Shown here one piece after another: positions 2,606 to 24,722 of a DNA stretch of 29,361 bases. The notes under the pieces are model-generated. The model worked only from the letters and a program-made list of their open reading frames with translations. It did no database searches and was not told the DNA's origin. The stretch lies in the IMG/VR virus record IMGVR_UViG_3300001352_000055, positions 1 through 29,361 of that record; one strand, written 5' to 3'. How positions within the stretch are numbered: the stretch's first letter is position 1; each line of letters opens with the position of its first letter. The DNA is from a virus. A program made the translations under genes and the position numbers.

Positions 2606-2613
2606 TATTTATC
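2606..2613 (-). promoter_or_regulatory. Late-promoter-like octamer upstream of lipoprotein gene
   Basis: The minus strand reads GATAAATA, overlapping the stop codon of the cytidylyltransferase gene and lying about 100 bases upstream of the lipoprotein ATG. One mismatch to the late promoter consensus. The same octamer is duplicated at 2244-2251 within a longer repeat. Confidence 0.35.
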
Positions 2614-3055
2614 CTTCTTCCGTCATTTTCCAATCGCCATCTTTATTTACCCAAGCACAACTCTTTCTTAAACTCGATGTGCTAAAACGATGGTCTCGCT
2701 TATTAAAGAATAATTCAACATCTCTCTTGCGACAAATATCTTTGCCTGTAAATTCCTTATCTCTATATTCTTCGCCTAGAATACGAACGTGAATTGTATA
2801 TAATTCTAATATATCTTCAAGATCTCTTTCTGTTGAATAAGGAATAATTTCATCAACATAACTTACTGCTTTAAGTTGAGTATATCTCTCAACAATAGTT
2901 TGGATAGGTTTATTCTTTTCTTTAGGTCGGTCAATAGCAGGATCCATTTGTAATCCTACCATTAAATAATCACATTGAGATTTTGCTTCTCTCAACATTT
3001 GAATATGCCCGGAGTGAAGCAAGTCAAAGCTGCTACATGTAAATCCAATTCTCAT
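2609..3055 (-). CDS. Cytidylyltransferase-like nucleotidyltransferase
   Basis: This 148-residue protein belongs to the HxGH nucleotidyltransferase superfamily of TagD/glycerol-3-phosphate cytidylyltransferase type. The CTP-binding HSGH signature is at His14-His17 in SSFDLLHSGH, and the second signature RFSTSSLR (123-130) fits the RxSTTxxxxR nucleotide-binding loop. A conserved W-rich C-terminus (DWKMTEEG) closes it. Such enzymes transfer CMP from CTP to an alcohol phosphate, making activated CDP-alcohols. The substrate cannot be read from sequence. It lies between gp15 and gp16 with its own AAGGA ribosome site and a 14-base gap from gp15, so it is probably co-transcribed with the neck genes. 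T4 lacks a gene here. A second, fused nucleotidyltransferase is encoded at 9440-10192. Confidence 0.88.
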   Translation of the reverse strand: MRIGFTCSSFDLLHSGHIQMLREAKSQCDYLMVGLQMDPAIDRPKEKNKPIQTIVERYTQLKAVSYVDEIIPYSTERDLEDILELYTIHVRILGEEYRDKEFTGKDICRKRDVELFFNKRDHRFSTSSLRKSCAWVNKDGDWKMTEEG

Positions 3056-3069
3056 AATAATAATTCCTT

Positions 3070-3927
3070 TTAACTGGGTTCAGTATCAGATGATGTTCCT
3101 ATGTAAGCCCAGTTGTCGTCAAACTCAATCAAACTATAATCTATTGTTTGTGTTATATCGGAGGTTGCTACATTATTTGCTGTAGAACCTGGTTGTCCTG
3201 TTTGATATACTTCAAACTCTGTATCAGCTGCTGTATCAGTTGCCAATCTTGCGTCAACAAATTTAATAACTGCCTTATCCTTCTCAGGTCCAAAGAACCA
3301 ACCTTTCATTGTAAAGTTAAGTGTATATAATATACTTCGTCTTGTTGTAAAAGCTTCTTCGTATAAATCTTCAGAAGTAACATCATTTAATATGAGAGGG
3401 ATATCTATTGCTTCTAATCCTGAAATAAGATTCACTGTACTCGTAAATTCAGGATTAAAGAATGGCAAGATTTGTTCTAAACATTTAACCGCATCTTCAT
3501 TATATTTTGCCATGATGTATAAACTGAATCCCATATTATATGGAGTTCCTGAATATACAAATCTTCTTCCACCGTTTTCTACGTCTACTGCTACCTTTCT
3601 TATTTTTCTTGTAGGTGAAACTTTTCTTTCAGCATCATATGTAAAACTTGTTAATTCAAAAGCCATACGAGGCAATGTCATTGCGAACGGTTGTCCTGCA
3701 GTTGGCTTTCCAAACGCGTCTTGTGTTGCTCCGCCCTGTAAGGTAGGATCTTGGTCAAGTCTTGCGAGTATCTTTTGATATGGTCCGTAAGATATAGGTA
3801 CTATCTGCCTCTGATTTAAAGTACCATCAGTAGTTGTTCTTCTAACTTCTAACTGATTAAAATATGTACCAAACAAAGCAACATATTTGCGAATCGTAGA
3901 ATTGTAAAAATAGTTTGCTATTGCCAT
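3070..3927 (-). CDS. 15: Tail completion / sheath stabiliser protein gp15
   Basis: This 285-residue protein is close in length to T4 gp15 (272) and sits between gp14 and gp16/17/18 as in T4. The N-terminus MAIANYFYNSTIRKYVALFG, followed by a basic RR segment, is typical of the marine T4-like gp15 family. gp15 caps the tail tube and sheath as a hexameric ring and connects the tail to the neck. The start ATG shares one base with the stop codon of gp14 (TAATG), indicating translational coupling. The C-terminal 30 residues are acidic and probably flexible. No truncation is evident. Confidence 0.93.
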   Translation of the reverse strand: MAIANYFYNSTIRKYVALFGTYFNQLEVRRTTTDGTLNQRQIVPISYGPYQKILARLDQDPTLQGGATQDAFGKPTAGQPFAMTLPRMAFELTSFTYDAERKVSPTRKIRKVAVDVENGGRRFVYSGTPYNMGFSLYIMAKYNEDAVKCLEQILPFFNPEFTSTVNLISGLEAIDIPLILNDVTSEDLYEEAFTTRRSILYTLNFTMKGWFFGPEKDKAVIKFVDARLATDTAADTEFEVYQTGQPGSTANNVATSDITQTIDYSLIEFDDNWAYIGTSSDTEPS

Positions 3928-4616
3928 TAGGTATCACTTATTGATATGTTTTCGCTAAACGGATCTACTTCTGAGAAATCAATAATACCATCTGCTTCAA
4001 TTTCAAAGTCGAGGTTGCTTGCGTTATCATCTGTTGAAGCCAATGCAGTAAGTGTTGCGTTATTTGCATCAACTATAATATCTGTGTTATAAGCAGCAAA
4101 GTAATTATCGATGTTAGCTCGACCAGTATTGAATCTTTGGTTTGCATATTCGATTAATTCACATTGCATATCATATACTTGAGTTTGTCCCATTTGATAA
4201 AATATGCTTTCATGTTCAACATATTTAATTTCAAACATCTTTTCATTTAGTGGGAAGTATATTAAATCGCCTTCTCTTGGACGAGTAAGTTCAACAACTT
4301 CTCGAGTCACGTGTCTTTCAAATGTTCTGTTGGCAACTGTAAGTGTTAATGTATCTCTTATTTGTAAACCAAACTTAGATAGGAAATCGCCTTCTCCTTC
4401 AAAACCTTCCATGCTTTTAACATAAGTTTCAAATTCAAAAGTTTCGTTATATTCTGGAAAGTCGTCTTCATTAAAAATGATATCACGACCTTTAATTGCT
4501 CTGCTAATATAAATTACATCAACACCATACTGCTTAATAGATTCTATTACCAAATCATCAATCAGTGACTGCTCTTGAACTTGAGAGTAATTATTAAAGA
4601 AAGTATTCGTGGCCAT
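3927..4616 (-). CDS. 14: Neck protein gp14
   Basis: This 229-residue protein (T4 gp14: 256) begins MATNTFFNNYSQVQEQ and contains the FEFETYVKSMEGFEGEGDFLSKFG region I recognise from gp14 of marine T4-like phages (quoted in parts: FETYVKSMEGFEGEG, about residues 62-76). gp14 forms the lower neck ring together with gp13, to which the tail binds after packaging. It starts 3 bases after the gp13 stop and ends overlapping the gp15 start, forming a tight gp13-gp14-gp15 operon. The C-terminal 50 residues are acidic (DADNNATLTAL onward) and less conserved in look. Confidence 0.92.
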   Translation of the reverse strand: MATNTFFNNYSQVQEQSLIDDLVIESIKQYGVDVIYISRAIKGRDIIFNEDDFPEYNETFEFETYVKSMEGFEGEGDFLSKFGLQIRDTLTLTVANRTFERHVTREVVELTRPREGDLIYFPLNEKMFEIKYVEHESIFYQMGQTQVYDMQCELIEYANQRFNTGRANIDNYFAAYNTDIIVDANNATLTALASTDDNASNLDFEIEADGIIDFSEVDPFSENISISDT

Positions 4617-4619
4617 TAC

Positions 4620-5363
4620 TTATCCGATATAATTGTACTGAAGAGGTTGTAGTTCGCCGATTGCTTCTTCTTCCATCAATCGTCTTTCTTCCTTTGCATC
4701 AGATAGTATTTGCTCTCCGTTAAATGCAACTCCACCTACAAGTTGCATGCCTGTAAATTTAGTTAGGTTTGAACCCCATTGTTCTTTGACTAAAGTAGCA
4801 GCATAATTCTGTAACCAACGATCAGACCATACATCACTGTAAGTATCACCGTCAATAACATCATACGCTTCAATAATAATATATTCACCGACAGGCATTG
4901 TATCCATTCCTGCATCTATGTGTAATCTATTTACATGTTTATTATAACGAATCATTGGTTTGCCAACAAGCATCTCTTGTAAGAATTCTAAATGTTGCAT
5001 TGACATATAATAATTTGTGATATTATAACCAGTAATATCTTCAAGATTATTTAAAACAAATTGATACTGAACATTAAAGATTCCACCACCTGTAGAAATA
5101 CTTGATTGCATATTAAAAATACCAGAAATACCAAGTATCGTTGTAGGTAGTGCTATATAACCATTATCTTTATCAGTTTGAGTAATCTGATGTTTCATAT
5201 AAACAAGCTGACTTCCGTTGTAATGATAATCTCTCCAGAAATCTATAGCTTCATCAAGACGATCATCGATTTGTTCATCTGACACATTAATATCAATGAC
5301 AGGTGCACCCAGCTTGCGGAGTACCCAGTCCTTGAATTGTTGTCTTGTTGTCGGTTGTGCCAT
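4620..5363 (-). CDS. 13: Neck protein gp13
   Basis: This 247-residue protein starts MAQPTTRQQFKDWVLRKLG and continues with DEQIDDRLDEAIDFWRDYHY (about residues 29-48), a segment typical of gp13 of T4-like phages of marine bacteria. T4 gp13 is longer (309). It contributes to the connector ring that seals the filled head below the portal. It is the first of the coupled gp13-14-15 set. A late-promoter-like AATAAATA lies about 25 bases upstream (5388-5395), and an AGAG serves as a weak ribosome site. The gene follows the adhesin-like block, marking the border between the variable and conserved regions. Confidence 0.92.
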   Translation of the reverse strand: MAQPTTRQQFKDWVLRKLGAPVIDINVSDEQIDDRLDEAIDFWRDYHYNGSQLVYMKHQITQTDKDNGYIALPTTILGISGIFNMQSSISTGGGIFNVQYQFVLNNLEDITGYNITNYYMSMQHLEFLQEMLVGKPMIRYNKHVNRLHIDAGMDTMPVGEYIIIEAYDVIDGDTYSDVWSDRWLQNYAATLVKEQWGSNLTKFTGMQLVGGVAFNGEQILSDAKEERRLMEEEAIGELQPLQYNYIG

Positions 5364-5404: not shown

Positions 5405-6346
5405 CTATAAAGATATAACCGTAGTTGCCGAAAAACGAAAGTCTTTTACCTTTGTGTCACTTACACCACTTGCTCTTGCCCATAATTCTATAGATCCTGT
5501 AAATATGTAAGTGGCATTTCCAGAAGAACTACTTGCGATGTTTGGAACTTGATTTATTACTACAGGTATGCCGGTACTTAAATTACTTGTTATCCACCCA
5601 GTGTCATAACTATTAACTGCATCAACGTTACTACCATTCATGGTTCGTAGAGGAGCAATGTTACCTGCTTGAGCACTTGCTGTGTCAACAGTCATTTTCA
5701 TTTTTATGCCTGTAATAGTTCCACTTGTAGTATTATTTCCATACACCCATAATCCTGGATTGCTTTGAGTTAATCCATAATATACAGTATTTGTGGTTGT
5801 GCTAAACTGAGAACCTTTTGTGTATGTTAATCCATCAGAGCCGGTCACAGACGATTGTCCAAAATATATTAAAGCCGTAAAGACAAGAACGCTATTCCAT
5901 CTAACATCTAATCTTGTTTCTGGTATTCCTTCACCATCAATATAGTCTGTCTCTCTCCATTCGTAAGAACCTACAGAACCACTGTTGGCTGTCTCAGTTC
6001 CAGTTTGGTCGTTATATGTTGTTTGCGCATTACTTGTTGAGTTAGGTCCTCTTGCGTAAGCATAGTCAAAACGAGTAGCACCAGAACCAGTTCCAGTTGC
6101 TTGACTATCATCAGTAGCAATTAATCTTAATCCTTGAGTGCCGCTAACATAATATTTTAAACCGAATCTTGTCTTGGCATTAGCTGAAGAACCACCATTA
6201 ACAACTTGGTTATGAACAAATCCTGATCCTTCGTTTAAGTCTGCTACAAGGTTTGTTATTACATTACTAGTAATACCTGCACTACCACCGCCAGTTCCAC
6301 CGGTATCTGTTGTGCCTGCTATTGTATTAAATGTATGACTTGGCAT
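5405..6346 (-). CDS. Putative virion adhesin/structural protein, Gly/Ser/Thr-rich
   Basis: This 313-residue protein has no family I can name with confidence. The N-terminus is low complexity (TDTGGTGGGSAGITS, residues 13-27), and the body is Gly, Ser, Thr and Asn-rich with regularly spaced aromatics, the composition of beta-rich fibre or adhesin domains. Its last 30 residues (IELWARASGVSDTKVKDFRF) match IECWARKSGYEDTKVATWRF in the neighbouring Hint-bearing protein, placed directly before that protein's Hint domain. The two genes therefore share a C-terminal module, and this one lacks the Hint extension. No signal peptide is present, as expected for a cytoplasmically assembled virion protein. 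AAGGA precedes the ATG, 12 bases after the upstream gene. Role as host-recognition or decoration protein is inference. Confidence 0.7.
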   Translation of the reverse strand: MPSHTFNTIAGTTDTGGTGGGSAGITSNVITNLVADLNEGSGFVHNQVVNGGSSANAKTRFGLKYYVSGTQGLRLIATDDSQATGTGSGATRFDYAYARGPNSTSNAQTTYNDQTGTETANSGSVGSYEWRETDYIDGEGIPETRLDVRWNSVLVFTALIYFGQSSVTGSDGLTYTKGSQFSTTTNTVYYGLTQSNPGLWVYGNNTTSGTITGIKMKMTVDTASAQAGNIAPLRTMNGSNVDAVNSYDTGWITSNLSTGIPVVINQVPNIASSSSGNATYIFTGSIELWARASGVSDTKVKDFRFSATTVISL

Positions 6347-6358
6347 CTTTTATTTCCT

Positions 6359-7783
6359 TTACTTATTATGAACAACGTGTCCATTAACAATATATGTACT
6401 GTCTCCACCAACAGTCAGTGTATATACATCCTTAATCTGTTCTGGTGATTTATCAATTGAAGTTACTTCTTCATCATAATATTCATTTGTTTCAGAATTA
6501 TATTTCTTCAATATATCTCCTACCGCAAGTTGTGTTAAATCAAGGTTTGGATAATCTAAGGTTTCAGTATTTTCTCCAAGACATTTCCAACCATCAGTTG
6601 TTAAGAATGGGTGAGTACTTGAAACAAACATATCACTTCCGTTTATAGAATAATAATAATCTCTTAATTTGAAAGTTCTAAATCCTTCAATTTCTTTATG
6701 TAAACCATCTTGACCAATAACGTAATGAACTTCGTCATCTTCTTTGTTTGAGTATTGATCGTAAGCTGAATCCAACGTCATAATGCTTACTGTATTTGTA
6801 TCAACATTCCATCTATATAAATTAGCTGACCCAATGAAACACCCAGACCCAGATGCTTGTGCATTGGCTTCAAATCTCCATGTAGCAACTTTAGTATCTT
6901 CATATCCTGACTTTCGAGCCCAACATTCGATAATTTCAATATCTGTTTCATTATCAGTACCAGCAACTGGACCATAAGCAGCTGCTGTTGCCGCTGCTGA
7001 AACGGACGCGCCTGATGATGTGCTTGCCGTAACATATCCTGTATCTGTTATAATAGTACCGCCCGTAGTCTTAAGAACACATCGAGTTGTGTCTGGTGTT
7101 ACTGAGTTTTCTTCCCATATTGTTGTTGATTGGCCACTCGTTCTTGAAACAAATGCGCCAGTTGATTGAGTGTAATACCCAAGAGGATCTCCACCAGTTC
7201 CAGTTGGAGTAAATCTGATTTCTGAACCACCGCCTGATCTTGCGCGATAATAAATATTACAAGAGGAAGTAGAAGTAATTGGATCATTTACACCAAAATT
7301 CCCGCTGTAATGATTATCCGATTCTCCGGTAAGGAGTGTGCCACCTTCTCGAGCAACAATACTTGTAGCTCCTGGCCAACCGTTTAGAGAACCTCCACCG
7401 TTGGCAGTATATCCAAAAGCAACTGCTCTTATTTCAGATGCGGATATTACAGTAAAACACAAGTGCCATCTTTGATAACCTGACCATGTTGGTGTTGTTC
7501 CGTCGGCCCAGTTTATATTGCTAGAAAAAGTTGGTGTATGATTTGAAGTACTAAGATCTAATAACATTTGTGCAGATTTTCCAGCCGCCGCAGCCGTTTC
7601 AGTAAAAGTAGTATCAGCTGATAATATACAATTCATAAACGGAGTTGAAAAATTTATGTTATCATTAGTAGAAGATATTGCATAAGCACCCGCATGAGTT
7701 TTAATTCTTCCTACATTACCAACGATATTTTCCAATACTCTTTGATTGTCAATAACTGACGTGCCTGCTATATTAATCGACAT
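6359..7783 (-). CDS. Adhesin-like virion protein with C-terminal Hint (intein-like) domain
   Basis: This 474-residue protein has three parts. Residues 1-20 (MSINIAGTSVIDNQRVLENI) match the leader of two neighbouring proteins. Residues 21-312 are Gly/Ser/Thr-rich beta-type sequence and include TPTWSGYQRWHL (97-108) and IECWARKSGYEDTKV (285-299), modules also found in neighbours. Residues 315-474 are a Hedgehog/intein-like Hint domain: Cys315 after SG, a block-B-like SSTHPF (His391), and a block-F/G-like ending VYTLTVGGDSTYIVNGHVVHNK (453-474, quoted in sense; key residues His472, Asn473). The protein stops one residue after the Asn, so there is no C-terminal extein and no Cys/Ser/Thr at +1. 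Self-cleavage at Cys315, or crosslinking through a thioester, is plausible rather than splicing. The start follows a GGAG, 2 bases after a tiny upstream gene. Family role in the virion is inferred. Confidence 0.75.
   Translation of the reverse strand: MSINIAGTSVIDNQRVLENIVGNVGRIKTHAGAYAISSTNDNINFSTPFMNCILSADTTFTETAAAAGKSAQMLLDLSTSNHTPTFSSNINWADGTTPTWSGYQRWHLCFTVISASEIRAVAFGYTANGGGSLNGWPGATSIVAREGGTLLTGESDNHYSGNFGVNDPITSTSSCNIYYRARSGGGSEIRFTPTGTGGDPLGYYTQSTGAFVSRTSGQSTTIWEENSVTPDTTRCVLKTTGGTIITDTGYVTASTSSGASVSAAATAAAYGPVAGTDNETDIEIIECWARKSGYEDTKVATWRFEANAQASGSGCFIGSANLYRWNVDTNTVSIMTLDSAYDQYSNKEDDEVHYVIGQDGLHKEIEGFRTFKLRDYYYSINGSDMFVSSTHPFLTTDGWKCLGENTETLDYPNLDLTQLAVGDILKKYNSETNEYYDEEVTSIDKSPEQIKDVYTLTVGGDSTYIVNGHVVHNK
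6362..6841 (-). other. Hint domain coding segment (residues 315-474)
   Basis: The segment begins at the predicted nucleophile Cys315 (codon at 6839-6841) and ends at the last sense codon. Visible Hint features are the N-terminal Cys in GSGCF, the TH-containing block B (SSTHPFLTTDGW, 388-399), the VGDILKKY turn (421-428) common before the C-terminal blocks, and the terminal His-Asn (472-473). There is no room for a homing endonuclease: 160 residues matches mini-intein or bacterial intein-like (BIL) domains. Confidence 0.78.
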
Positions 7784-7944: not shown

Positions 7945-8373
7945 TTATGCTCCCCAACTTGTTGCGGTAACTGAATGAACAGTAGAATCCCAAGATGTTA
8001 TAACAATAATCCAGTATCTTGCAGTTGTCCAATCAGGTTCTGAATCATTTTCAAAAAGCCAAGTTTTACCACCGCCAAATGTTAAATCGTGCAAGTCAGT
8101 TGATCCGTCAACTAAATATGTAAATTGATCACCGCCTGTAGTACCAGTTATTCCAGTAATTATTACATCACTACCACTTAATGTTAAAAACTCTTGAGTT
8201 TCTGCGGCCATAGATTGGGCAAGATTTGCTGTACCTTGAGTTCTTGTTGCGTAACCTGGTTGAACATTATCGTATTCACCATTAACTCCAGTAAGATTTT
8301 TAAACTGCATACCAGTTAAAGCACCACTAGTCGTTCTATCTATTACTGTTGTTCCGCCTATTTTAATTGCCAT
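7945..8373 (-). CDS. Small adhesin-like virion protein (142 aa)
   Basis: The protein opens with MAIKIGGTTVIDRTTSGAL, the same leader as the 337- and 474-residue neighbours (IAGTTVID type). Its C-terminal part, DWTTARYWIIVITSWDS (about residues 114-130), corresponds to TPTWSSDRYWTISGVIWPDG in the 337-residue protein and TPTWSGYQRWHLCF in the Hint-bearing protein. It therefore looks like a minimal version of a shared fold, leader plus one beta-domain. AGGAG lies upstream of the ATG, and the gap to the preceding gene is only 4 bases. Probable virion component; exact role unknown. No signal peptide or membrane segment. Confidence 0.7.
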   Translation of the reverse strand: MAIKIGGTTVIDRTTSGALTGMQFKNLTGVNGEYDNVQPGYATRTQGTANLAQSMAAETQEFLTLSGSDVIITGITGTTGGDQFTYLVDGSTDLHDLTFGGGKTWLFENDSEPDWTTARYWIIVITSWDSTVHSVTATSWGA

Positions 8374-8377
8374 ATAA

Positions 8378-9391
8378 TTAAACTCCTGGGTTCACTCCGG
8401 CCGTTGGTCCGTAATTACAAAACACACTTAATGGACCTACGTTAGCCGTCGAATAAAATGTACCTTCATTACACACAATCTTAATTCTAAAATCTGGATC
8501 TGAAGAGTTAAAGTTTGCAGTAGTATGAGAATCATTTCCTGAGCTTGAATCTACTTCTGCAGACCAGCCAAAGAACACCTGCGATGAAGCACAATTATAA
8601 TAAGTTCCTGCTGCCAAGCCGTCATCTGTTGGCAAAGGGCCATAACTGTGACCCGAATTACTTCCGCAATTAGATCCTGAACAGTTCTGAGTGCCAGGGT
8701 TATATTGAACTTCTACTGATGATATTCCAGTTAATCCTGTATAGTTTGCATATGTAGTATACTGAGTAGATCCGTTTCTCGAATCACCTGAACCATAAGT
8801 TACATTAACTCTATTATTTGCTGCACTATGAAGAAACGACATCCAGGCTGCAGCCCAAGGAGTACCTGATCCAAAAGAACTTGCTAGGTTATCCCATTGA
8901 TTACCAAGACCACCTAAAAAATTTGAAAACGAGGATGATGGAGCCGACACTGCATCAAAAGGTACCGCTGTACATCTTGCTACACCATCAGGCCATATTA
9001 CACCACTGATTGTCCAATATCTATCGCTTGACCAAGTAGGTGTTGATGTAAATGAAAATTGAGAAATAAAGGTTGGGGTATACCCAGCGGATGCACGATC
9101 TAAATATATGGTAAAATGACTACCGATTTGACCTGCACTAAAAGCTCCAGCAGGAGCTACAGAAAACTGCAAGTTTTGAGTCATCGCGAAACTAAATGCA
9201 GCATAACCTTGAGTAGATGCTGTACCGCTGTCTGCATCTCCTATTGGTATTGCACCACTAGATGGAATTGTTATTACATCCGGATGAAAATCCGTAAAGT
9301 TAACATCTTCAAAAAATGTTTCATCACCATTGGAAGTGCCAATAACTCTTGAATCGTCAATTACCGTTGTGCCGGCTAGTTTAATCGCCAT
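8378..9391 (-). CDS. Adhesin-like virion protein (337 aa)
   Basis: First gene of the adhesin-like block, with a perfect late promoter 39 bases upstream (9431-9438) and a strong GGAGG ribosome site. The leader MAIKLAGTTVIDDSRVIG is shared with two downstream genes. A central beta-domain contains YTPTF and TPTWSSDRYWTISGVIW (about residues 107-133), paralogous to neighbours. The distal half is Ser/Gly/Asn-rich with a cysteine cluster (NCSGSNCGSNSGHSYG, about 236-251) and ends in GPTAGVNPGV. Composition and context (next to neck genes, in a fibre region) suggest a virion-surface or host-binding protein. No enzymatic motif seen. No named family can be supported. Confidence 0.7.
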   Translation of the reverse strand: MAIKLAGTTVIDDSRVIGTSNGDETFFEDVNFTDFHPDVITIPSSGAIPIGDADSGTASTQGYAAFSFAMTQNLQFSVAPAGAFSAGQIGSHFTIYLDRASAGYTPTFISQFSFTSTPTWSSDRYWTISGVIWPDGVARCTAVPFDAVSAPSSSFSNFLGGLGNQWDNLASSFGSGTPWAAAWMSFLHSAANNRVNVTYGSGDSRNGSTQYTTYANYTGLTGISSVEVQYNPGTQNCSGSNCGSNSGHSYGPLPTDDGLAAGTYYNCASSQVFFGWSAEVDSSSGNDSHTTANFNSSDPDFRIKIVCNEGTFYSTANVGPLSVFCNYGPTAGVNPGV

Positions 9392-9439: not shown

Positions 9440-10192
9440 TTAGTCTCTTCTTTCAATATCAGATTCTTCGAGTTTGTCTCCAAGCCATACTTCAATTACT
9501 TTAGCGGTTTCGGTACCAACATTTGTTGCTCTATGCCAAACATTCTTTGGAATGTCAACACTTTGCCCTTCCCAATAGATACGAGATTCTGTTCTGTTCA
9601 TACCATGATCAAGTTCCATTAATATAGAACCTTTTACAACATGCCAATGTTCAGATCTGTGTTTATGTTTTTGGTCGCTTAGTGATTGTCCTGCATCAAA
9701 ACTTAGTTCTTTAACTCGCCAAGATCCGTTAGAATCTAATATTTTATATGTACCCCATTTACGCTGAGTCGTAGGTTGAGACCATTCTTTTAATATCCAA
9801 CTTGATGAATTCTTTTTATCTTCTCCACCAACTCCAAACTCAAACTGAATACCTTCTACTGCCATCTCAGGGATGTTGTCTGATGTTCTATCACCACCAT
9901 TAACAAATATAATGGTATCGTGTGGATACAACAATTTAACTTGTTCTAAGCAATGTATCGCGCTTCCATCAGAATCATCAAAATCAATAACTGCATCAAC
10001 ACATGCTAATGCCTTAACGATTGCTGCTCTTTCTTTCCAAGGCATAAATGCTCTACCTTTCTTTCGTATTAACCATTCGTCAGAATTAACTCCAACGACA
10101 AGGTTAGTACCAGAAAGTGAAGCATCTTTTAAATATTCAATATGTCCTGAATGAATTGGATCAAAACCACCTGTCGCAACTACAGTAATCAT
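9440..10192 (-). CDS. Nucleotidyltransferase-cupin fusion (HldE/TagD-like plus ManC/AlgA-like cupin)
   Basis: Two domains are visible in 250 residues. Residues 1-137 form an HxGH nucleotidyltransferase: GGFDPIHSGH (8-17), VNSDEWLIRKKG (35-46), KERAAIV (53-59), NGGDR (98-102) and SSSWIL (129-134). Together these resemble the adenylyltransferase domain of HldE/RfaE more than TagD. Residues 144-250 form a cupin very like the C-terminal domain of GDP-mannose pyrophosphorylase/type II mannose-6-phosphate isomerase: RKWGTYKIL (144-152), metal-binding HKHRSEHWHVVKG (176-188; His176, His178, Glu181) and His220 in IPKNVWHRATN. The pyrophosphorylase domain that normally precedes this cupin is replaced by the nucleotidyltransferase. 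It probably makes and isomerises an activated sugar. The ATG overlaps the upstream stop (ATGA), implying coupling. Substrate unknown. Confidence 0.88.
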   Translation of the reverse strand: MITVVATGGFDPIHSGHIEYLKDASLSGTNLVVGVNSDEWLIRKKGRAFMPWKERAAIVKALACVDAVIDFDDSDGSAIHCLEQVKLLYPHDTIIFVNGGDRTSDNIPEMAVEGIQFEFGVGGEDKKNSSSWILKEWSQPTTQRKWGTYKILDSNGSWRVKELSFDAGQSLSDQKHKHRSEHWHVVKGSILMELDHGMNRTESRIYWEGQSVDIPKNVWHRATNVGTETAKVIEVWLGDKLEESDIERRD

Positions 10193-13380: not shown

Positions 13381-13406
13381 AAACTAGTTCATATGTCAAC
13401 TAGTTT
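13381..13406 (-). terminator. Rho-independent terminator at the end of the giant fibre gene
   Basis: A perfect 9-base inverted repeat (AAACTAGTT and AACTAGTTT, 8-base loop) overlaps the TAA stop codon. On the minus strand the 3' arm runs into a short T tract (TTTTTGAT). The stem is AT-rich, so it may be only partly efficient. Confidence 0.6.
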
Positions 13407-16400
13407 ATGACAACTTTTTTACCAACTCTGAAACCATGTCTTTAAGATCGCTGATTTCTTGTTGCTGTTTATTTATAATGGTTTGCTGCTCTTTAATTGC
13501 TTCAATTGTTAGAGCAACCATTCTACCATATTCTACCGTCTTGTAATTCTTACCTGATTTTGAAGTACCTAACAATTCTGCTTGAGAAAGTTCGCCTTCG
13601 ACATATTCAGTATCAGGATTACCTTGATGTAAATCAAACGGTGCAGGCATAACAAGCTGAGGTAATACTTTTTCAACTTCTTGAGCAAGAACACCAACAT
13701 CATTGTATTTCTGTTCAGGATGGAATCCTGCTTCACCTGCCTCATCAGTCCAATCAAAAGTAACACCTCTTAATGTACATAATTTTTCAAGTGCATTTTC
13801 AATTGGCTTAATGTTTGTTTTTAATCTTTCATCAGATGAATAAGCAATAACATTATATCTTGCTCTTAAATTACCACCAAGCTGACAGTCATTATTTACC
13901 ATACTCAATGTCATTGGCCAGTAACCATTATAGGTTGACCAAGAAGTAGTATTATTACTTCGACCACTCAATACGTAAAATACGTTAGAGTTCTGGTGAA
14001 CCATTGAGGTATAATGGTTCACATCTCTCATGTATAGAGTAGGTGAACTACCTTGAATAATAATCTGATTACCAGGAACATTAATTTGGTAAAGATTTGA
14101 AGTACTTGCTGGGTCAACATAGTAGCCTGTGTTGTTTCTGTCATAGAACAACGTAGCACGCATATCATCTCTACATACAATTCTAGGACCGATAGCAGCT
14201 CTCCACGATCCGTTGTTGATAATCAACATACCGTGGTCACTTAACTGATTAGCTCCACCTAACGAACCTGCGTTTGGATGCGACCATGCAATACCATACA
14301 TATTTGCAGCTGAAGTACCAGCAGAGTTCGGTCTATAGGAAGAACCCATTGCGAATACACACTGTAATCTTGTAGAAGTATAAGTACCAGTTACACCAAC
14401 ACCGTAGTTTAAGAATGTATGATATCCATTTTGTTGTGAAGTACTCCAATAAGAAGTACTTGCTGGATTCATATAGTATCCAGTGTTATTTGAATCGTAG
14501 TAAATACCGGCATACATAGCGCCGCCATTACCATTGTTAACATCCAACATTGGAATAGTACGCCAAGATCTCCAAGTAGGCCATGAACTTCTGAATCGTA
14601 AGTTCTCAATTGGTCCACCAACCATCTGCCAACCATAACCAGAAGTATTACTATTTCTATAATGGAATGCCTGTGTACCAACCCAATGAGATGTACCTGA
14701 TGGCTGGTTGGGTGGACTAGACCAAGAATCAATAAAGCCTGAACCCCAAGTACTAACAACGTTCATGTCGACTCGACTCCAACCCATAGCACCAGTCCAA
14801 TAGTTGGTATCACTTGTTCTCTGAGCTCTTGATCTGTAGAATTCACCAGAGTTTCTTGTATGACCAGGCAGATTCATATGAGCCATTGTTCTATTACTTA
14901 CACCTTCAAATCGCGTTGATCTTAGAGATGCGCCATCGAAGTAGTAAGCAGTATTATTTCTATCGTAATAGATATAAGCTCGAGCATCGTTCATATATGA
15001 TACGCCGAACTGTTCAGTACTTGTACTTCCTGGACTTATTCTAAAGGCCCAGCCACCACCGCTGTGTAATAGACCAAAACCACCACTATCGTAATATAAG
15101 TAACCACGACGATTCCCAGATGCACCCTGAGAACCGTTATATCCAGAGTATATAATCAATCCACCAGAACCACTTGCACCATCTAAGTGCCAATAAGTTG
15201 AACCTGGGCTGTAGAAGTGACGGCCTGTTGCTTGGTTATATAAACCTTGGCCTGCATTATAGTTTCTGAACCAATTATAGTTATAAAGATTGCCAACTGT
15301 CGTTGTATTAAATCTTGAATCACCAGAACCTGAACCGAAGTAATAAGCAGTGTTATTTCTGTCGTAGAAGATATTAGCTCTTACATCATTCATATACGAA
15401 GTAGAGGCAAAGTTACCATAATAAGCAGTATCATCTCTATCATAGTAAATGTTAGCTTGAACTGAACCATTTACAAAAGTGGTTCCACCTACATACCATT
15501 GTAAGTATAGGTTATTGCCTGAACGAGAATCTAAGTGTAAGTTACCGTTTGTAGTCGCAACCGAAGCTTCGTTATTATATCGACCATTTGTACCAACAGC
15601 AAGGTATCTACCCCAACTTGGGTTAGGTCCGTGTAATGCACCACCTCTAATTCTTAAAGCAGCATTAGAAGTTGAATTAGGATCTAAGTAATAACCGGTA
15701 TCATTATTGTCATAGAAGATTGGTGCACGAGCTGAAGCAGAGTGGAATGAGTTACCACTGTTATCTATTCGTAACGACCAACTACCACCACTATTTAAGA
15801 AACCAATTTCATTTGAGTTGGTAGCATATACATAACCACGAGCATTATTGCCTGAAGTTGTAAATAGAATCTGCGAAGTACTACTTGTTGAATACAATCT
15901 GAATCTTGAAGATGAATCAGAGTACCAATGCATTGCTGTTGCTTGGTTATATAAACCTTCACCGGAGTTATCGTTACGGAACCAGTTTCTTGCATAAACC
16001 TCATTAGCACGAACAGACACATTAAAATTAGAAGCACCATCTGGATCTACATAAAACCCAGTATTATTCCTATCATACATAATAGGAGTATCAAATCTTG
16101 ATGCAACTAATACCTGTCCATTACCACGAATGATTTGGTTCCAAGTTCCACTTGTACCACCATCTCTGAATGATATATCTTCATTACCTGATGTAGCAAT
16201 GATTAAGTGGGCATCGTTCTCTTCACGTGATTGAATATAACCACGAACATTACCTGATTGAGTTCTTAACGAAATTGTACCGTAGTTACCAATTGTAAGG
16301 TTTTGTAATATTGAAGTACTTGCCGGGTCAGTATAGAAACCTGTATTATTAATATCGTAGAATATCGGTGAACGAAGACTGTTATAGTTATAGAAATCTG

Positions 16401-19400
16401 TGGAAGATGTTGCTACCTGTCTCCAACCTGGACTATAACCACCACCTTGGTTATTGTAAATATAAACAGCTCCACCACCATTACCAGTCGTTGGACGAAT
16501 AACTAATGTTGTATAATAAGAACCGTCATGCCAGGTTGCTAAAGAAGATCCTGCCATTTCAATTGAAGTAATACCTGTATTTACATCAGAGTTACCAGCG
16601 TATGACCATGGAACCTTTTGAGCAGTAAAGCCTTGTGATAAAGCTTCGTTATCTCCTAAGTCACCAATAAAGTTAGCGGTTGAAGTACCGTTATTAAAGT
16701 ATCCTGTACTCCATCTGAACCTACCGAAGTTATCAGGTAAGTAACCATTTAAAGATTCGTTAATCGTTAGTCTTCTTAATACTGAAGTTCCATTAGGATC
16801 TACACGATAAGTTGTATCGTTATAGTCATAGAAGATTGGGGCTCTGAAATCATAGAAGGCGTAGAAGATACGGTTAGTATCTAATCTTGCTGCCTCGACT
16901 TGACCAGGCGCATACATTCTTGTTCTTCGACCAGAATAATAGTTGAGGTATATATCATTACTATTCTGCGCATCAATATGGAGGTTACCACCAAGATAAA
17001 TTCTACCATTGCCATTTACTGATTCAATCGTTACACCATTTTCAACTCTAAGGTTATTAACTCTGGTATCACGGAATCTTGCATCACCTTGGCTTGAACC
17101 AAAGTAATAAGCTGTATTTTCACGTTCATAGAATATGTTAGCTCTTACATCATTCATATATGAAGTAGAAGCAAAGTCACCGTAGTATGAAGCGTTATTT
17201 AAATCGTAATAGCGTGGTGAACGCATATGTCGAGAACCACGGAATACTTCTGTTGCTAATTCAGCATTCTCTGCAACACCATCACCGTATAATACAAACG
17301 TTGCACCAGTACCATCAGGGTTATTATCAGTTACTCTTATCTCTGCATCAAACGCTGTAGTTACGAATCCTAATCTATTCCCACGAAGTACCATTGTACT
17401 AAACTGAGATGTACCATTAGGATTTGCATAATAACTTGTATCATTTGAATCGTAGAAGATTGGGGCTCTCCAATCCTGAGAACCTGTACCACCAACACCA
17501 TGTAATCTACCGTCATTGGCAATATAAGATTTATCAGAACCATCTTGTCTGAACTGAACAATTCTATTTGAGTTTCCGTTAGATACAATGTACCAACGGT
17601 TACTGTGCATTTGAATCTTACCTACACCACTACCTGGATTTCCTGTCCAGTTTGAGTTGCCGTTTGAACGAATATCAGAACTTGTAATCTCAATCGCACC
17701 TGCACCACCATCGAAGTTAACATCTCCAACAAATTGCATTGTGTTAAATCTTGAATTACTTGCTGGGTTTGCGTAGTAATTAGTATCGTTTGAATCGTAG
17801 AAGATTGGAGCTCTTAACGAGTTAGCAGCTTGTAAGTAATTACCAACAGTGATATAATTACTTGAATACATTGACATAGAAGTATAACGAGTACCTGATG
17901 TATTCGTATTATAGAATACTGTATGACCATCTCGTTCAAACCTCATGTAGGCCTGACCACCAATTGTATTAGGTCTACCTAAGTAATATTGGTTTGTATT
18001 TGCATTAAGATTATTATCAACGTTATAACCAAAACCTGCGCCTTCCCACGTTCTTCCTGGTTCTGATACCCAAGCTTGTAATGCCCATTCTCCTGTACCA
18101 TTGCCGTTTTGAGGAGCATTTAGAGCTAATCTTATTGCCGTATTACCGTGATCACCAGTTACATCTAATCTCTTACCTGCGGCTCTATAACCAATACCTA
18201 ATTGCCACATACGACCGTTAGAGTTTGGATCCAAGTAGTAAGAAGTATCATTTCTATCGTACATTAACGTAGGACGAATATCACCTACGAATTCAGATCT
18301 GCCTGCGTATGTTCTTTGTTGCCAATCATTAACTCGGCGAGTTTCTAATCTATCAGAGTATCCTAAGATTGAAGTAGCAGGTGCACCTGCGGTTCCTGTA
18401 GCACTGAATGCAATTACTGAAACACCGTTGGATGCGTTAAATAGTCGAATGTTTTCGTTATAACTATTAACCTCATTACCATCATTAATCCAAATAGATG
18501 GGTTTTGAATCACACCACGAACATTTACCGAAGTACCTGTTGAAGCAGGATCTATATAATATGCAGTATTACCACGATCTCTAAATATATTTGCATCAAT
18601 AACATCAGCAGTAATATCATCAACTGTTAAGTCACCTGTAATAAACGCATTACCATCAACATTAAGTTGATCTGATACTCTTAAATCATCAACTAATAAA
18701 TTAGATTCAGCATTACGTCTCTTCAACATAATACCGCCGTACTCTCTTAAAGCACCGCCTGAGTTATAGTTAAGTAATATTCTTATTCTTACGTAATGTA
18801 CACCACCACCATCAGACCCATTATATGGAGTATGAGATGTTGGCATTGTTGTATGATTTCTTAATGTTTCCCAAGAAGTACTTGTTCTGTTTGAACCACC
18901 AACTACGAAATATGTTGTACCTGTATTACCTGCGATTGGTTTCTTATCTTTATCGAATCTCTCAACACCGTAGTATAATAAACCACCTGAGCCTGAAATA
19001 AGTCGAGTTGAAATTTCACCGTAAATATCTTCACCAGGACTAACAGGAATATAGTTTGAATAGAAGTTTCTGTATGCAGATGTTCTTAATACATAACCAC
19101 CCGCGAAAGGACCGTCACCTTTAACATATTCACTCGTAGTTCCTGTAAGGTTATTCTCATTGTCATCAATGTTTTGTATTACCCTTGCTTCCATATATGG
19201 AGTCATATCGAATAAAACAAGATCTGCTCCACCTGAACCATATGCTGGATTCAATGATATATTTTCGTTACCACCACTTAGTGCAAAGTTACCTGCAGAA
19301 ACAGTTCCTTGGAAGTATGCATTACCGTCATCGAGATCAATACTTGCTCTTACATTACCTGAACCTACAAATACATATTCATTAGGATTACTTGAACCAA

Positions 19401-22400
19401 AGTGTTGATATGCAGCACCATTATTACCTGCCCAGAATGTACCCCAGTTACCAGCAGTGTTCCAAATCCAATGCGAATAATCTTGAGCTTCAATTACCTT
19501 GTTTGTATCACCATTACCTGATGTATCAAAACCTTGACGGTAGATTCTACCGTTAGTCATCAATCCGCGGCTTGTATTACCTGCAGCTGGATTTAAGTAA
19601 TAAGTAGTATCATTTGAATCATAATAGATTGGTGCTCGCATTTGATTATTTGCGAGGAAGTAACCATTTGCTGTTTCAGCCTGTTGGGTTCCGTTATAGT
19701 ATAAAAGAGTTCCGGCGTTTCTATACCACTGTTGACTCCATTCGTTATCGGTATCATTGTAAATACCAACACGTTCTGGTCCATTTGACATTAAGACCCA
19801 TTGGCCTGCGATAGAATAACCAGCCCAACCAGATTTATAACCGCCAACTTCCATTGAACCGTAATTACCAGAAGCAGCATCGGCATAATATGTAGTTGCA
19901 TGGTTAAAGTAATAACGCAATGCTTGTACTGCGTTTAATCTTGTAGTACTTGCAGCGTCAACATAATAACCAGTATTACCACTATCATAATAGATAGGCG
20001 AACGAAGTTGATTCTGTCCAAGGAAGTAACCATTTTCAGCACTTCCCTGTTGTGAACCGTTATAGTACATGGCAGTTACACCACCATTCTCGCCTCTAAA
20101 TAACCAATGATTATTTACATCGTTATAGATACCACTAGTGTTCGCGTTGTTGTGCATAAATACAACACGATCATTAATAGAGAAGCCTTCGTATCCACTT
20201 CGTCCTGTACCAGAAACCGTTAATGAACCAAACGTACCATTAGGTGATCTTAATATAACACCATCTTCGAGTTTGATTGTTGCTAATCTTGATTCACCAG
20301 CAGGATCTGCAAAGTAAGCAGTATTGTTTGTATCAATAAACTTATCTGCGTAGAAGTCGTTACCTGTACCTGGGTTAACATTATATAATGGGAAGTCAAC
20401 AAAATTAGAATAGGCAGTGCCTGAGTTCCAAGTTTGTTGCCACAGTCTCATTCCAAGACCAGACTTTTTAACCATTAATAAGTTATCAGAACCACCAGAA
20501 GAATCAGTGTAAGATCTAAAGTGTAAGTAATCAGCCCAAGGTGCAGTATTGTTATTATTCCAAGATGTGAAACCGAATCTTAATCTTCCTGCAGTATCTT
20601 CATTTGGTTCAATAATACGGTTATCTCTAGACTTCAGATAATTTGCATATCCTGAAACACCTGGAGCTTGAATCTCATTCGTTACTGTTAGGTTAACAAA
20701 ATCACCTGAAGTAATATATGAATTGCCCCAACGATAAGCGGGTAAACCTAAATTACCTTGAGCATTAACTCTTGGTATTACCGTTGCACCAACAGTACCA
20801 TTACTTTCACCGAATACATAATGAGTTGAAGCTTCAGACGAATCAAATACCATTGCCAAGCCAGCACCAGTGGTAACTGAGTTATCAGCGTGCCAAACTT
20901 TAATAGATGCTTGTTGTTTTCCACTTAATCCGGCTAATTCACCAGATTGGTCGGTCATTGTAATACCGACACCGCCGCCATTAGTAGGCTTTTGTAATTC
21001 TATTCCTGAACCGTAAACTTCAAGCTTGTTTCTAAATCTTATCCTGCCATTGTTAATTTGGCCTCTAATAATACCGCCAGTTGTAAGTTCAATCTGGTCA
21101 GCGGCCGGGAATCCAATATAGGTATTTGTGTCACCACGATGTCTTACCCAATCATCAATATCTACTGTGTTAAATTGTGAGTCACCATCTGGGTCAGCAT
21201 AATAAGCAGTATTCTGATATGAATAGAATACATTACCGTAATATGCACCTGTTGTGTAAATATGCTTATTATTTCTAGAACGGAGATATGTACCATCGGT
21301 CATGTACCAACCGCCACCCCAACCGAATCCTAATTCTTCATCTTTAAGGAATGTTGCTGTACCACGACCAATTACAATAGCATCATCACTACCTGCTAAT
21401 TGAATTGAACCGCCGACGTGTAATCTGTTTGTTGTAAGTGCTCCGCCAACAACTGGAGTATTATCACCTACTGTATATGTTGGTGCTGAAGAATTCGCAA
21501 TCATAACATTTACGTTATCATCAACAATTAATGCTTCAGTATATCCTGAATTCCAGAATCCCCAAGTTGTTCCTGATTTTAATACTTGATATAAGTTGCC
21601 TGAACTATCACCACGAATAGAACCACCGTCTACTCCGTCATGATAAAAGTGAATATATCTTTGACCGTTTCCTGCTGGGTTAGCAGATGAATCAATAAGA
21701 TTCATATATTGTAATGCGTATCCACCAGAAACATTACCACTTATTGCGATTGAAGGATTACTTGTAGATCCGTTTCCGTCTCCGTAACCCATTAAGGCAA
21801 TACCACCATTACCTGTCGTATCAGCCCATCTTGAATTGTTTGCGATGTTTTCTATTCTTACCGCACCAGCAAAGGTTGCCGCTAATGTTGTATCACCGGG
21901 ATGTACAAAATAACCTGTAGCATTTCTATCAACAAATCTATCTGCTTGAACATCACCTTGAACAATAACAGGGTGAGAGAATGTTGAGTTAGCATCCGTA
22001 ATATTTAATCTTTCAACACCGCCTGTGACAAACGTTTGACTATCTGCAGCATCAAAACCAAAGTAATTATTTGTATCACCACGATGACGAATATAAGTAT
22101 CAATATCAATTTGTGCCATCTGAGAAGTAGATGCAAAGTTACCATAATAATTTGTGTTATTTGAATCGTAGAAGATAGGTGAACGCATTTGATTATTTGC
22201 TAATACATAAGTATCATTAACTAATAATCTTTGAGCATTACCTGTGACAACTTCAAAACTGTTTGCGCCGTTGAAGTTTAAATATGTATCAGTATCACCG
22301 TCGTGGAATATAGTACCAACAAGACCAATACCAGACATTCTTGAATTGCCTGCTGGATTAACATAGTATGTTGCGTTATTTAAATCGTAGAAAGTACCTG

Positions 22401-24672: not shown

Positions 24673-24722
24673 TCGGTTCACTCTCCCCAGATAGGCGGTT
24701 TTTATTAATCAACGTATACCTT

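What the first reader, a model, noticed from the sequence alone, without database searches (positions are those of the whole stretch)
6362..6841. C-terminal Hint (intein-like) domain on a phage adhesin-like protein
Residues 315-474 of the 474-residue protein carry Hint features (Cys315, THPF with His391, terminal His472-Asn473) and the chain ends one residue later in Lys. There is no C-extein, so ordinary splicing is impossible. The likely chemistry is N-terminal thioester formation followed by hydrolysis or attack by an external nucleophile, which could trim the adhesin or attach it covalently to another virion or host-surface molecule. The neighbouring 313-residue protein ends at exactly the module that precedes Cys315, so the cleaved form would resemble its neighbour. 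A self-processing adhesin in a T4-like tail locus is the best candidate here for an undescribed mechanism.
Basis: partly seen in the sequence, partly recalled or inferred. Interest (0 to 1): 0.75.

Follow-up and report, generated by a model that had tools for sequence, protein, structure and literature searches.

The report
Self-processing Hint domain on phage adhesin
A phage tail adhesin from a metagenome ends in a genuine intein-type (Hint) domain that stops exactly one lysine after its catalytic His-Asn. The same Hint-plus-one-lysine ending recurs on several different tail proteins of uncultured phages, which suggests a built-in chemistry for trimming or covalently capping phage tail parts that no paper I could search describes.

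Summary
Confirmed and extended. Residues 315-474 of the 474-aa adhesin (window 6362-6841, minus strand) are a real Hint domain. AlphaFold2 gives pLDDT 90.9, and the best solved match is the Tetrahymena BIL2 intein-like domain (Z 18.2, 2.1 A over 139 residues). Cys315, Ser388-x-x-His391, Thr463, His472 and Asn473 are in place.

Searches blind to the +1 residue show that this Hint clade ends in His-Asn-Lys-stop on at least six kinds of tail protein. In the first such scan 28 of 31 loci read HN-K-stop and 3 read HN-Cys. In a pooled profile search all 27 non-redundant terminal copies did so; ten internal copies also have Lys +1 and one has Arg. True inteins in the same searches have Cys/Ser/Thr. 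The Lys travels with the Hint: Hint-less homologues lack it. Codons vary silently, and the domain is under purifying selection (dN/dS 0.14-0.34).

Best reading: an active autoprocessing domain that forms a thioester at Cys315, with Asn473-Lys474 also cleaved or ligated. Precedent: BIL2 makes isopeptide bonds to lysine. No activity is shown; the lysine's role is inferred. New variant of a known kind.

The parts
6359..7783 (-). 474-aa adhesin ORF with C-terminal Hint
   Evidence: relatives with the same architecture
6842..7783 (-). residues 1-314: all-beta adhesin part with N-terminal motif M[AS]I[KN]IxGTxVID shared with neighbouring ORFs; ends in a module (ECWARKSGYEDTKVATWRFEANAQASGSG) that closes Hint-less paralogues too
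6362..6841 (-). residues 315-474: Hint domain plus one-residue C-flank
6839..6841 (-). Cys315, predicted thioester nucleophile (Hint residue 1), invariant in 30 of 30 relatives
6611..6622 (-). block B: Ser388-Ser-Thr-His391 ([ST]xxH in all 30 relatives)
6395..6397 (-). Thr463 of the block-F 'DTY' motif, nearly invariant
6365..6370 (-). His472-Asn473, block G (Asn cyclisation residues), invariant
6362..6364 (-). Lys474, +1 residue and last residue of the protein; +1 Lys characteristic of this Hint clade
5405..6346 (-). 313-aa Hint-less adhesin directly downstream (12-base gap); same closing module as residues 286-314 of the Hint adhesin
4620..5363 (-). head-tail adaptor (phrog_211, Ad2), conserved downstream neighbour
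3927..4616 (-). T4-type neck protein (PF11649, phrog_460)

Best explanation
The 160-residue tail end of this adhesin is an autoprocessing Hint domain close in sequence and fold to bacterial intein-like (BIL) domains, and it works after translation on the adhesin's own C-terminus. Likely steps: (1) N-to-S acyl shift at Cys315, helped by Ser388/His391, puts the adhesin's C-terminal ...Gly-Ser-Gly on a thioester; (2) an amine or water resolves the thioester and frees the adhesin from the Hint; (3) Asn473 cyclises and breaks the Asn473-Lys474 bond. Because the +1 residue is a fixed single Lys, I favour the thioester being taken over by that Lys, by its side chain or its freed alpha-amine. The mature adhesin would then end ...GSG-Lys and the 159-residue Hint would be lost; simple hydrolysis and transfer to another protein's lysine remain possible. 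The module is C1...His-Asn-Lys and has been put on the C-termini of several different tail-tip and baseplate proteins. Shown: the fold, the catalytic residues, the fixed HN-K-stop ending, purifying selection, and that Lys comes with the Hint and not with the carrier. Inferred: that any reaction occurs, its products, and the role of Lys. My confidence is 0.6 that the domain is an active processing domain, and about 0.3 that Lys474 itself ends up on the adhesin.
For: Hint fold at pLDDT 90.9, with solved BIL2 (6y75), mini-inteins, CthBIL (2lwy) and hedgehog Hint as matches, Z 18 to 15. Profile matches to BIL chains 6tmm/6y75/2lwy at E about 1e-9. In a 30-row alignment down to 25% identity the only invariant columns are C, F, H, G, W, H, N, K: block-A Cys, block-B His, block-G His-Asn and +1 Lys, plus F, G and W. 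A DNA scan of 2.9 million viral contigs specified nothing after HN: 28 of 31 loci read HN-K-stop, 3 read HN-Cys. A slightly wider scan of about 85,000 prokaryote genomes gave 11 inteins with Ser/Cys +1 and one HN-K-stop, which is a phage adhesin contig. An HMM built without the Lys column: 27 of 27 non-redundant terminal copies have K-stop, 10 internal copies have K, 1 has R; copies scoring under 80 bits have C/S/T/A. Internal copies in DUF4815/VrlC tail proteins read HN-K-(GG)DP[LV][AG][QE]TF, while three Hint-less cultured homologues read ..GWW/GWY/QWR-DP[LI]AQSF, so Lys belongs to the Hint. Silent variation of the H, N, K and stop codons, and Hint dN/dS 0.14-0.34. BIL2 of Tetrahymena, the best structural match, is reported to make an isopeptide bond to a lysine epsilon-amine (PMC8616854), and BIL domains lacking a nucleophilic +1 mostly cleave but are reported to ligate in some cases (titles and summaries cited in PMC7664689 and PMC5874633).
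Against: No cleavage, splicing or conjugation was observed; everything is sequence and predicted structure. The terminal copies form one clade (bootstrap 92 / SH-aLRT 90), so 27 of 27 is conservation in one lineage and not 27 independent events. One internal copy has Arg +1. Lys474 might be kept for charge or simply as a leaving group. One review says A-type BIL domains cannot ligate their flanks (PMC7765530).
Confidence: 0.6

Rival explanations
1. Intermolecular conjugation: the Cys315 thioester is handed to a lysine (or other amine) of another virion protein or of the host surface, tethering the adhesin covalently, as Tetrahymena BIL2 hands a ubiquitin-like domain to lysines of other proteins.
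For: BIL2 is the closest solved fold and is described as a dispensing platform that makes isopeptide bonds (PMC8616854). In all nine loci examined, the window included, the Hint adhesin is followed within 20 bases by a Hint-less adhesin or fibre gene, a possible partner. Carriers are tail-tip and baseplate proteins.
Against: Nothing in the sequence identifies an acceptor. The fixed His-Asn-Lys end would not be needed for pure transfer; hedgehog Hint domains transfer without it (general knowledge).
Confidence: 0.17
2. Simple trimming: thioester hydrolysis plus Asn cyclisation remove the Hint and the Lys, and the domain serves as a removable C-terminal cap or folding aid, functionally like the self-cleaved C-terminal chaperone domains of phage fibres.
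For: Hint-less paralogues end at the same place, so the trimmed form is a natural end. A C-terminal intramolecular chaperone is known on the T5 fibre pb1 (abstract of PMC4690869, listed).
Against: Does not explain why the +1 residue is Lys in terminal and internal copies alike.
Confidence: 0.25
3. A mobile, now functionless intein relic or cassette that spreads between tail genes with its stop codon; the domain is tolerated, not used.
For: One clade on many carriers; no endonuclease needed for spread by recombination; appended to complete carriers such as gpI (phrog_32 matched to 200/203).
Against: Catalytic residues are kept at identities down to 25% and dN/dS is well below 1; Lys is kept although any residue would do; relics normally lose residues.
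Confidence: 0.1
4. An ordinary intein or polymorphic-toxin HINT whose C-extein or toxin was lost by truncation or misassembly.
For: Same superfamily; PT-HINT profile matches 10 of 30 relatives.
Against: 27 of 27 terminal copies stop at the same place in independently assembled contigs; downstream genes are intact tail or neck genes. The +1 is Lys, not Cys/Ser/Thr. In polymorphic toxins the HINT lies just before a toxin domain (PMC3482391); there is none here.
Confidence: 0.03

Closest known systems
Tetrahymena thermophila BIL2 (BUBL1 polyubiquitin locus; PDB 6y75, 6tmm)
   Same: Best structural and profile match (Z 18.2; E about 1e-9); Cys1 and terminal His-Asn; lysine chemistry reported (PMC8616854)
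   Different: Lies between ubiquitin-like domains; here the Hint ends a phage adhesin and the only C-flank is one Lys
A-type bacterial intein-like (BIL) domains, e.g. CthBIL (PDB 2lwy)
   Same: Hint fold, terminal His-Asn, +1 not required to be Cys/Ser/Thr, in variable surface-type proteins
   Different: BILs are described as inserted in variable regions; here +1 is fixed as Lys and is usually the last residue
Class 1 inteins
   Same: Fold, Cys1, block B [ST]xxH, block G HN
   Different: No Cys/Ser/Thr +1, no C-extein in terminal copies, placed at carrier ends instead of inside conserved sites
Hedgehog Hog/Hint
   Same: C-terminal Hint acting on the N-terminal part (Z 14.8 to 1at0)
   Different: Hog lacks the His-Asn end and has a sterol-recognition region (general knowledge); neither applies here
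Pretoxin HINT (PF07591) of polymorphic toxins, including phage tail-fibre stalks
   Same: Hint on long surface proteins
   Different: Those release a C-terminal toxin; no cargo follows here
Uncultured Caudovirales 'Hint domain containing protein' entries (BFVD A0A6J5KSY2, A0A6J5M6E1)
   Same: Closest viral predicted structures; Hint domains in uncultured phage proteins are already annotated
   Different: Annotation only; their +1 residue was not visible to me and I found no study of them

Membership tests
Hint (hedgehog/intein) superfamily | Horseshoe all-beta Hint fold | tested here: met
   pLDDT 90.9; 6y75 Z 18.2, 84 chains with Z>=8
Hint (hedgehog/intein) superfamily | Block A Cys/Ser1 and block B TxxH | tested here: met
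   Cys315; Ser388-x-x-His391; [ST]xxH in 30 of 30
Intein (class 1) | C-terminal His-Asn | tested here: met
   His472-Asn473, invariant
Intein (class 1) | Cys/Ser/Thr at +1 and a C-extein | tested here: not met
   Lys474 then stop
A-type BIL | His-Asn end with +1 not required to be Cys/Ser/Thr | tested here: met
   HN-K
A-type BIL | Inserted in a variable region, flanked by protein on both sides | tested here: not met
   Terminal copies have one residue after HN; only internal relatives (L109, L125, L117, L030, L032, L033) have a C-flank
A-type BIL | Demonstrated N- and/or C-cleavage or alternative splicing | not testable with these tools
   needs protein chemistry
B-type BIL | No His-Asn at the C-terminus | tested here: not met
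   HN present
C-type BIL (Bdellovibrio) | PPS-1 domain in the protein | not tested
   no model at hand; known to me only from PMC9185962
BUBL (ciliate BIL-ubiquitin) | Ubiquitin-like domain with RGG before Cys1 | tested here: not met
   preceded by an adhesin module ending ASGSG
Hedgehog Hog | Sterol-recognition region after the Hint | tested here: not met
   protein ends at residue 474
Polymorphic-toxin HINT | C-terminal toxin domain after the HINT | tested here: not met
   no residues after Lys474

The most novel reading that the evidence does not exclude
A class of Hint domains uses a +1 lysine as built-in nucleophile: the thioester passes to the Lys amine, Asn cyclises, and the carrier is released with its C-terminus capped by, or in internal copies joined through, that lysine, possibly by an isopeptide bond. 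Phages have moved this 'Hint-Lys' cassette onto many tail-tip proteins, and one giant tail protein carries five Hints, some of them separated by a single Lys.
Probability: 0.27. Interest if true: 0.85.

Novelty: new variant of a known kind. Interest (0 to 1): 0.6.

Why it matters
If active, this would be an intein-type self-processing domain used as a normal maturation step of phage tails, with lysine where textbook inteins have Cys, Ser or Thr. It would link phage assembly to lysine-directed protein ligation otherwise reported for a ciliate ubiquitin-like locus, give a compact (about 160-residue) C-terminal tag that may trim, cap or conjugate the protein before it, and make the question of how a Hint ligates without a canonical +1 nucleophile directly testable with one short gene.

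Tried and rejected
Searching cultured phages for the adhesin or its Hint gave nothing. A relative's Hint found only distant inteins and Hints in TerL, portal, tape-measure and other proteins; four of these matches (H1, H2, H5, H21) were read and carry +1 Ala, Ser or Thr, the Ala one being of toxin type (HNAEC). A second query found Achromobacter phage 2-1, whose tail-fibre-like Hint has no HN end. PHROGs has no family for the adhesin. I tested whether Lys belongs to the carrier: three Hint-less VrlC homologues have Trp/Tyr/Arg there, not Lys. I tested whether HNK-stop is a split gene whose second half follows: the VrlC carriers do have the C-part as a separate ORF, but it is split elsewhere and starts with a plain Met, with no intein half or N-terminal nucleophile, and gpI or adhesin carriers are complete, so trans-splicing is not supported. 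A nucleotide-level cause for HNK-stop was rejected because the codons vary silently. Widening the search with the 21-row alignment failed and was replaced by a 5-row one. A bacterial phylum search failed on its argument and was not repeated. Literature searches found no study of C-terminal Hint domains on phage tail proteins; the library lacks most subscription papers, so this is not proof of absence. The full-length adhesin model (pTM 0.48) is too weak to name the N-terminal fold.

Full report
What was checked. The window is a 29-kb virus record from IMG/VR. The ORF at 6359-7783 (-) encodes 474 residues ending ...TYIVNGHVVHNK-stop. A single-sequence Pfam search gives Intein_splicing (PF14890) at E 9.8e-6, below that family's curated score, and phmmer against PDB gives DnaB mini-inteins at E 6e-4. 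This alone would be suggestive, so I gathered relatives.

Relatives. Three viral-contig searches and one DNA-pattern scan brought in about a hundred loci. A 30-row alignment of the domain, down to 25% identity to the window copy, has eight invariant columns: the block-A Cys-Phe, the block-B His, Gly-Trp, and His-Asn-Lys at the end. All rows have [ST]xxH in block B. The profile of this alignment hits solved BIL domains 6tmm/6y75 and 2lwy and mini-inteins at E about 1e-9. AlphaFold2 with this alignment gives pLDDT 90.9 and pTM 0.85; Foldseek and VIA-align place it with BIL2 of the Tetrahymena BUBL1 locus (Z 18.2, rmsd 2.1 A over 139 residues), mini-inteins (Z 17), CthBIL (Z 15.6) and hedgehog (Z 14.8). 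The Hint assignment is therefore firm.

The lysine. I tested this without bias. A DNA pattern for the residues T-Y/F-I/V-V-D/N-x-aromatic-x-V-H-N, with nothing specified after HN, was scanned over the whole viral collection: 31 loci, of which 28 read K-stop directly after HN and 3 read Cys and continue. A slightly wider pattern over about 85,000 prokaryote genomes gave 12 loci: 11 inteins with Ser or Cys +1, and one HN-K-stop, a phage adhesin on a contig binned with a Pirellulales MAG. An HMM trained without the Lys column, run on all fetched loci, gave 50 non-redundant domains reaching HN. At 90 bits or more there are 27 terminal copies, all with Lys as +1 and as last residue; 10 internal copies with Lys; one internal copy with Arg; one with Cys. 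Below 80 bits all have Cys, Ser, Thr or Ala. The three codons vary silently (CAC/CAT 11:13, AAC/AAT 11:13, AAA/AAG 10:14) and all three stop codons occur, so conservation is at the protein level. The 26 terminal copies complete enough for a tree form one clade (92/90), so this is one lineage conserving Lys over deep divergence, not many independent gains.

Lys belongs to the Hint. Internal copies in DUF4815/VrlC-type tail proteins read HN-K-GGDPLAQTF, HN-K-GGDPVAQTF and HN-K-DPVGETF; a Cys +1 version at the same site reads HN-C-GGDPIAQSF. Three of the 1,494 cultured phage records that matched this region were read: they have no Hint there and read ..GWW-DPLAQSF..GWY-DPLAQSF..QWR-DPIAQSF. One protein (L032) has five Hints, in part separated by a single Lys..LIVHN-K-CFIAGTE....LVHN-K-CFIAGTR...

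Carriers. Terminal Hint-Lys is found on: the adhesin family of the window; lambda gpI-like tail assembly proteins (phrog_32, matched to position 200 of 203 before the Hint); a phrog_2048 tail protein (to 376 of 390); the N-part of DUF4815/phrog_358 proteins; a Baseplate_wedge (PF23786) protein; a Phage-tail_3 protein; and others without a match. For gpI, phrog_2048 and the adhesins the carrier is complete before the Hint. Most records have a single copy; the 169-kb record has one.

Adhesin locus. In eight related loci the Hint adhesin is followed within 20 bases by a Hint-less adhesin or fibre gene (313 to 1,476 aa), then by the 247-aa-type head-tail adaptor and, where the locus reaches that far, the neck gene. 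Hint-less paralogues end with the same '..GYxDTxxxxFxxxAxA..' type of module that precedes Cys315, so removal of the Hint would leave a natural adhesin end. Within the adhesin family the Hint has dN/dS 0.14-0.34, no weaker constraint than the adhesin part, 0.24-0.52.

How it most likely works. Conserved Cys1, block-B Ser/Thr and His, and His-Asn imply thioester formation and Asn cyclisation (established Hint chemistry). Asn cyclisation needs a residue after Asn; the clade supplies exactly one, always Lys in terminal copies. In the closest solved relative, BIL2, the reported product is an isopeptide bond to a lysine epsilon-amine, and BIL2 is described as handing its N-terminal partner to other proteins (PMC8616854). 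BIL domains without a nucleophilic +1 mostly cleave, and reviews differ on how well they ligate. The simplest model that uses all conserved features is that Lys resolves the thioester and the adhesin is released with a terminal Lys, while the Hint is discarded. Hydrolytic trimming and transfer to another lysine are the main rivals. None of these reactions has been observed.

Known or new. Hint domains in uncultured phage proteins are already annotated in databases ('Hint domain containing protein', uncultured Caudovirales), and HINT on tail-fibre stalks is known in polymorphic toxins, where a toxin follows (PMC3482391). I found no description of a terminal Hint with a fixed single Lys in the literature held here. 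I class it as a new variant of the BIL/Hint kind. It is not a class 1 intein (no Cys/Ser/Thr +1), not a Hog domain, not a BUBL protein; it resembles A-type BIL domains but terminal copies lack a C-terminal flank beyond the Lys.

Noticed in passing
L032:1297-8499 (+), protein P0002: A 2,400-aa DUF4815-type tail protein with five Hint domains in tandem, some separated by a single Lys (..LVHN-K-CFIAGT..); L033 has two (HN-R-C and HN-K-GGDPLAQTF). An unusual architecture.
   Followed up: partly
L079, L081, L130, L047 (Hint end 6432 or equivalent): The DUF4815/VrlC-type protein is split in two ORFs: an N-part ending in Hint-K-stop and, 33-38 bases later, an 800-aa C-part that begins anew with MTVSSST/MPASATT.
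   Followed up: partly
L049 and L059: Cys +1 Hints in the same kind of giant tail protein as Lys +1 Hints, suggesting canonical inteins and Lys-type Hints share an insertion region.
   Followed up: partly
window 9440-10192 (-) and 2609-3055 (-): Nucleotidyltransferase-like genes inside the tail/neck locus, one fused to a mannose-6-phosphate isomerase/cupin domain; both are kept at the same places in related loci.
   Followed up: no
window 7945-8373, 8378-9391 and 6359-7783 (-): Three adjacent ORFs share the N-terminal motif M[AS]I[KN][IL]xGTxVID, repeated in many adhesin genes of related loci; possibly a common virion-attachment motif.
   Followed up: partly
L073: Contig binned in a Pirellulales MAG carries the HN-K-stop adhesin; probably a phage contig misplaced in, or infecting, that genome.
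   Followed up: no
L022:8924-9550: 208-aa ORF downstream of a Hint-K carrier contains '..LQPGGACFIEAPTPSP..', which looks like the first residues of a Hint (CFI) followed by a Pro/Thr-rich tail; possible Hint remnant.
   Followed up: partly
window 13405-24681 (-): 3,758-aa giant ORF in the tail locus, no Hint by profile search; not analysed further.
   Followed up: no
L065:4083-5525 (Achromobacter phage 2-1): Tail-fibre-like protein of a cultured phage with a Hint start (NCDCNCSCFPAGTMVLMADG) near its C-terminus but no terminal His-Asn; a hedgehog-like end and a culturable comparison.
   Followed up: partly
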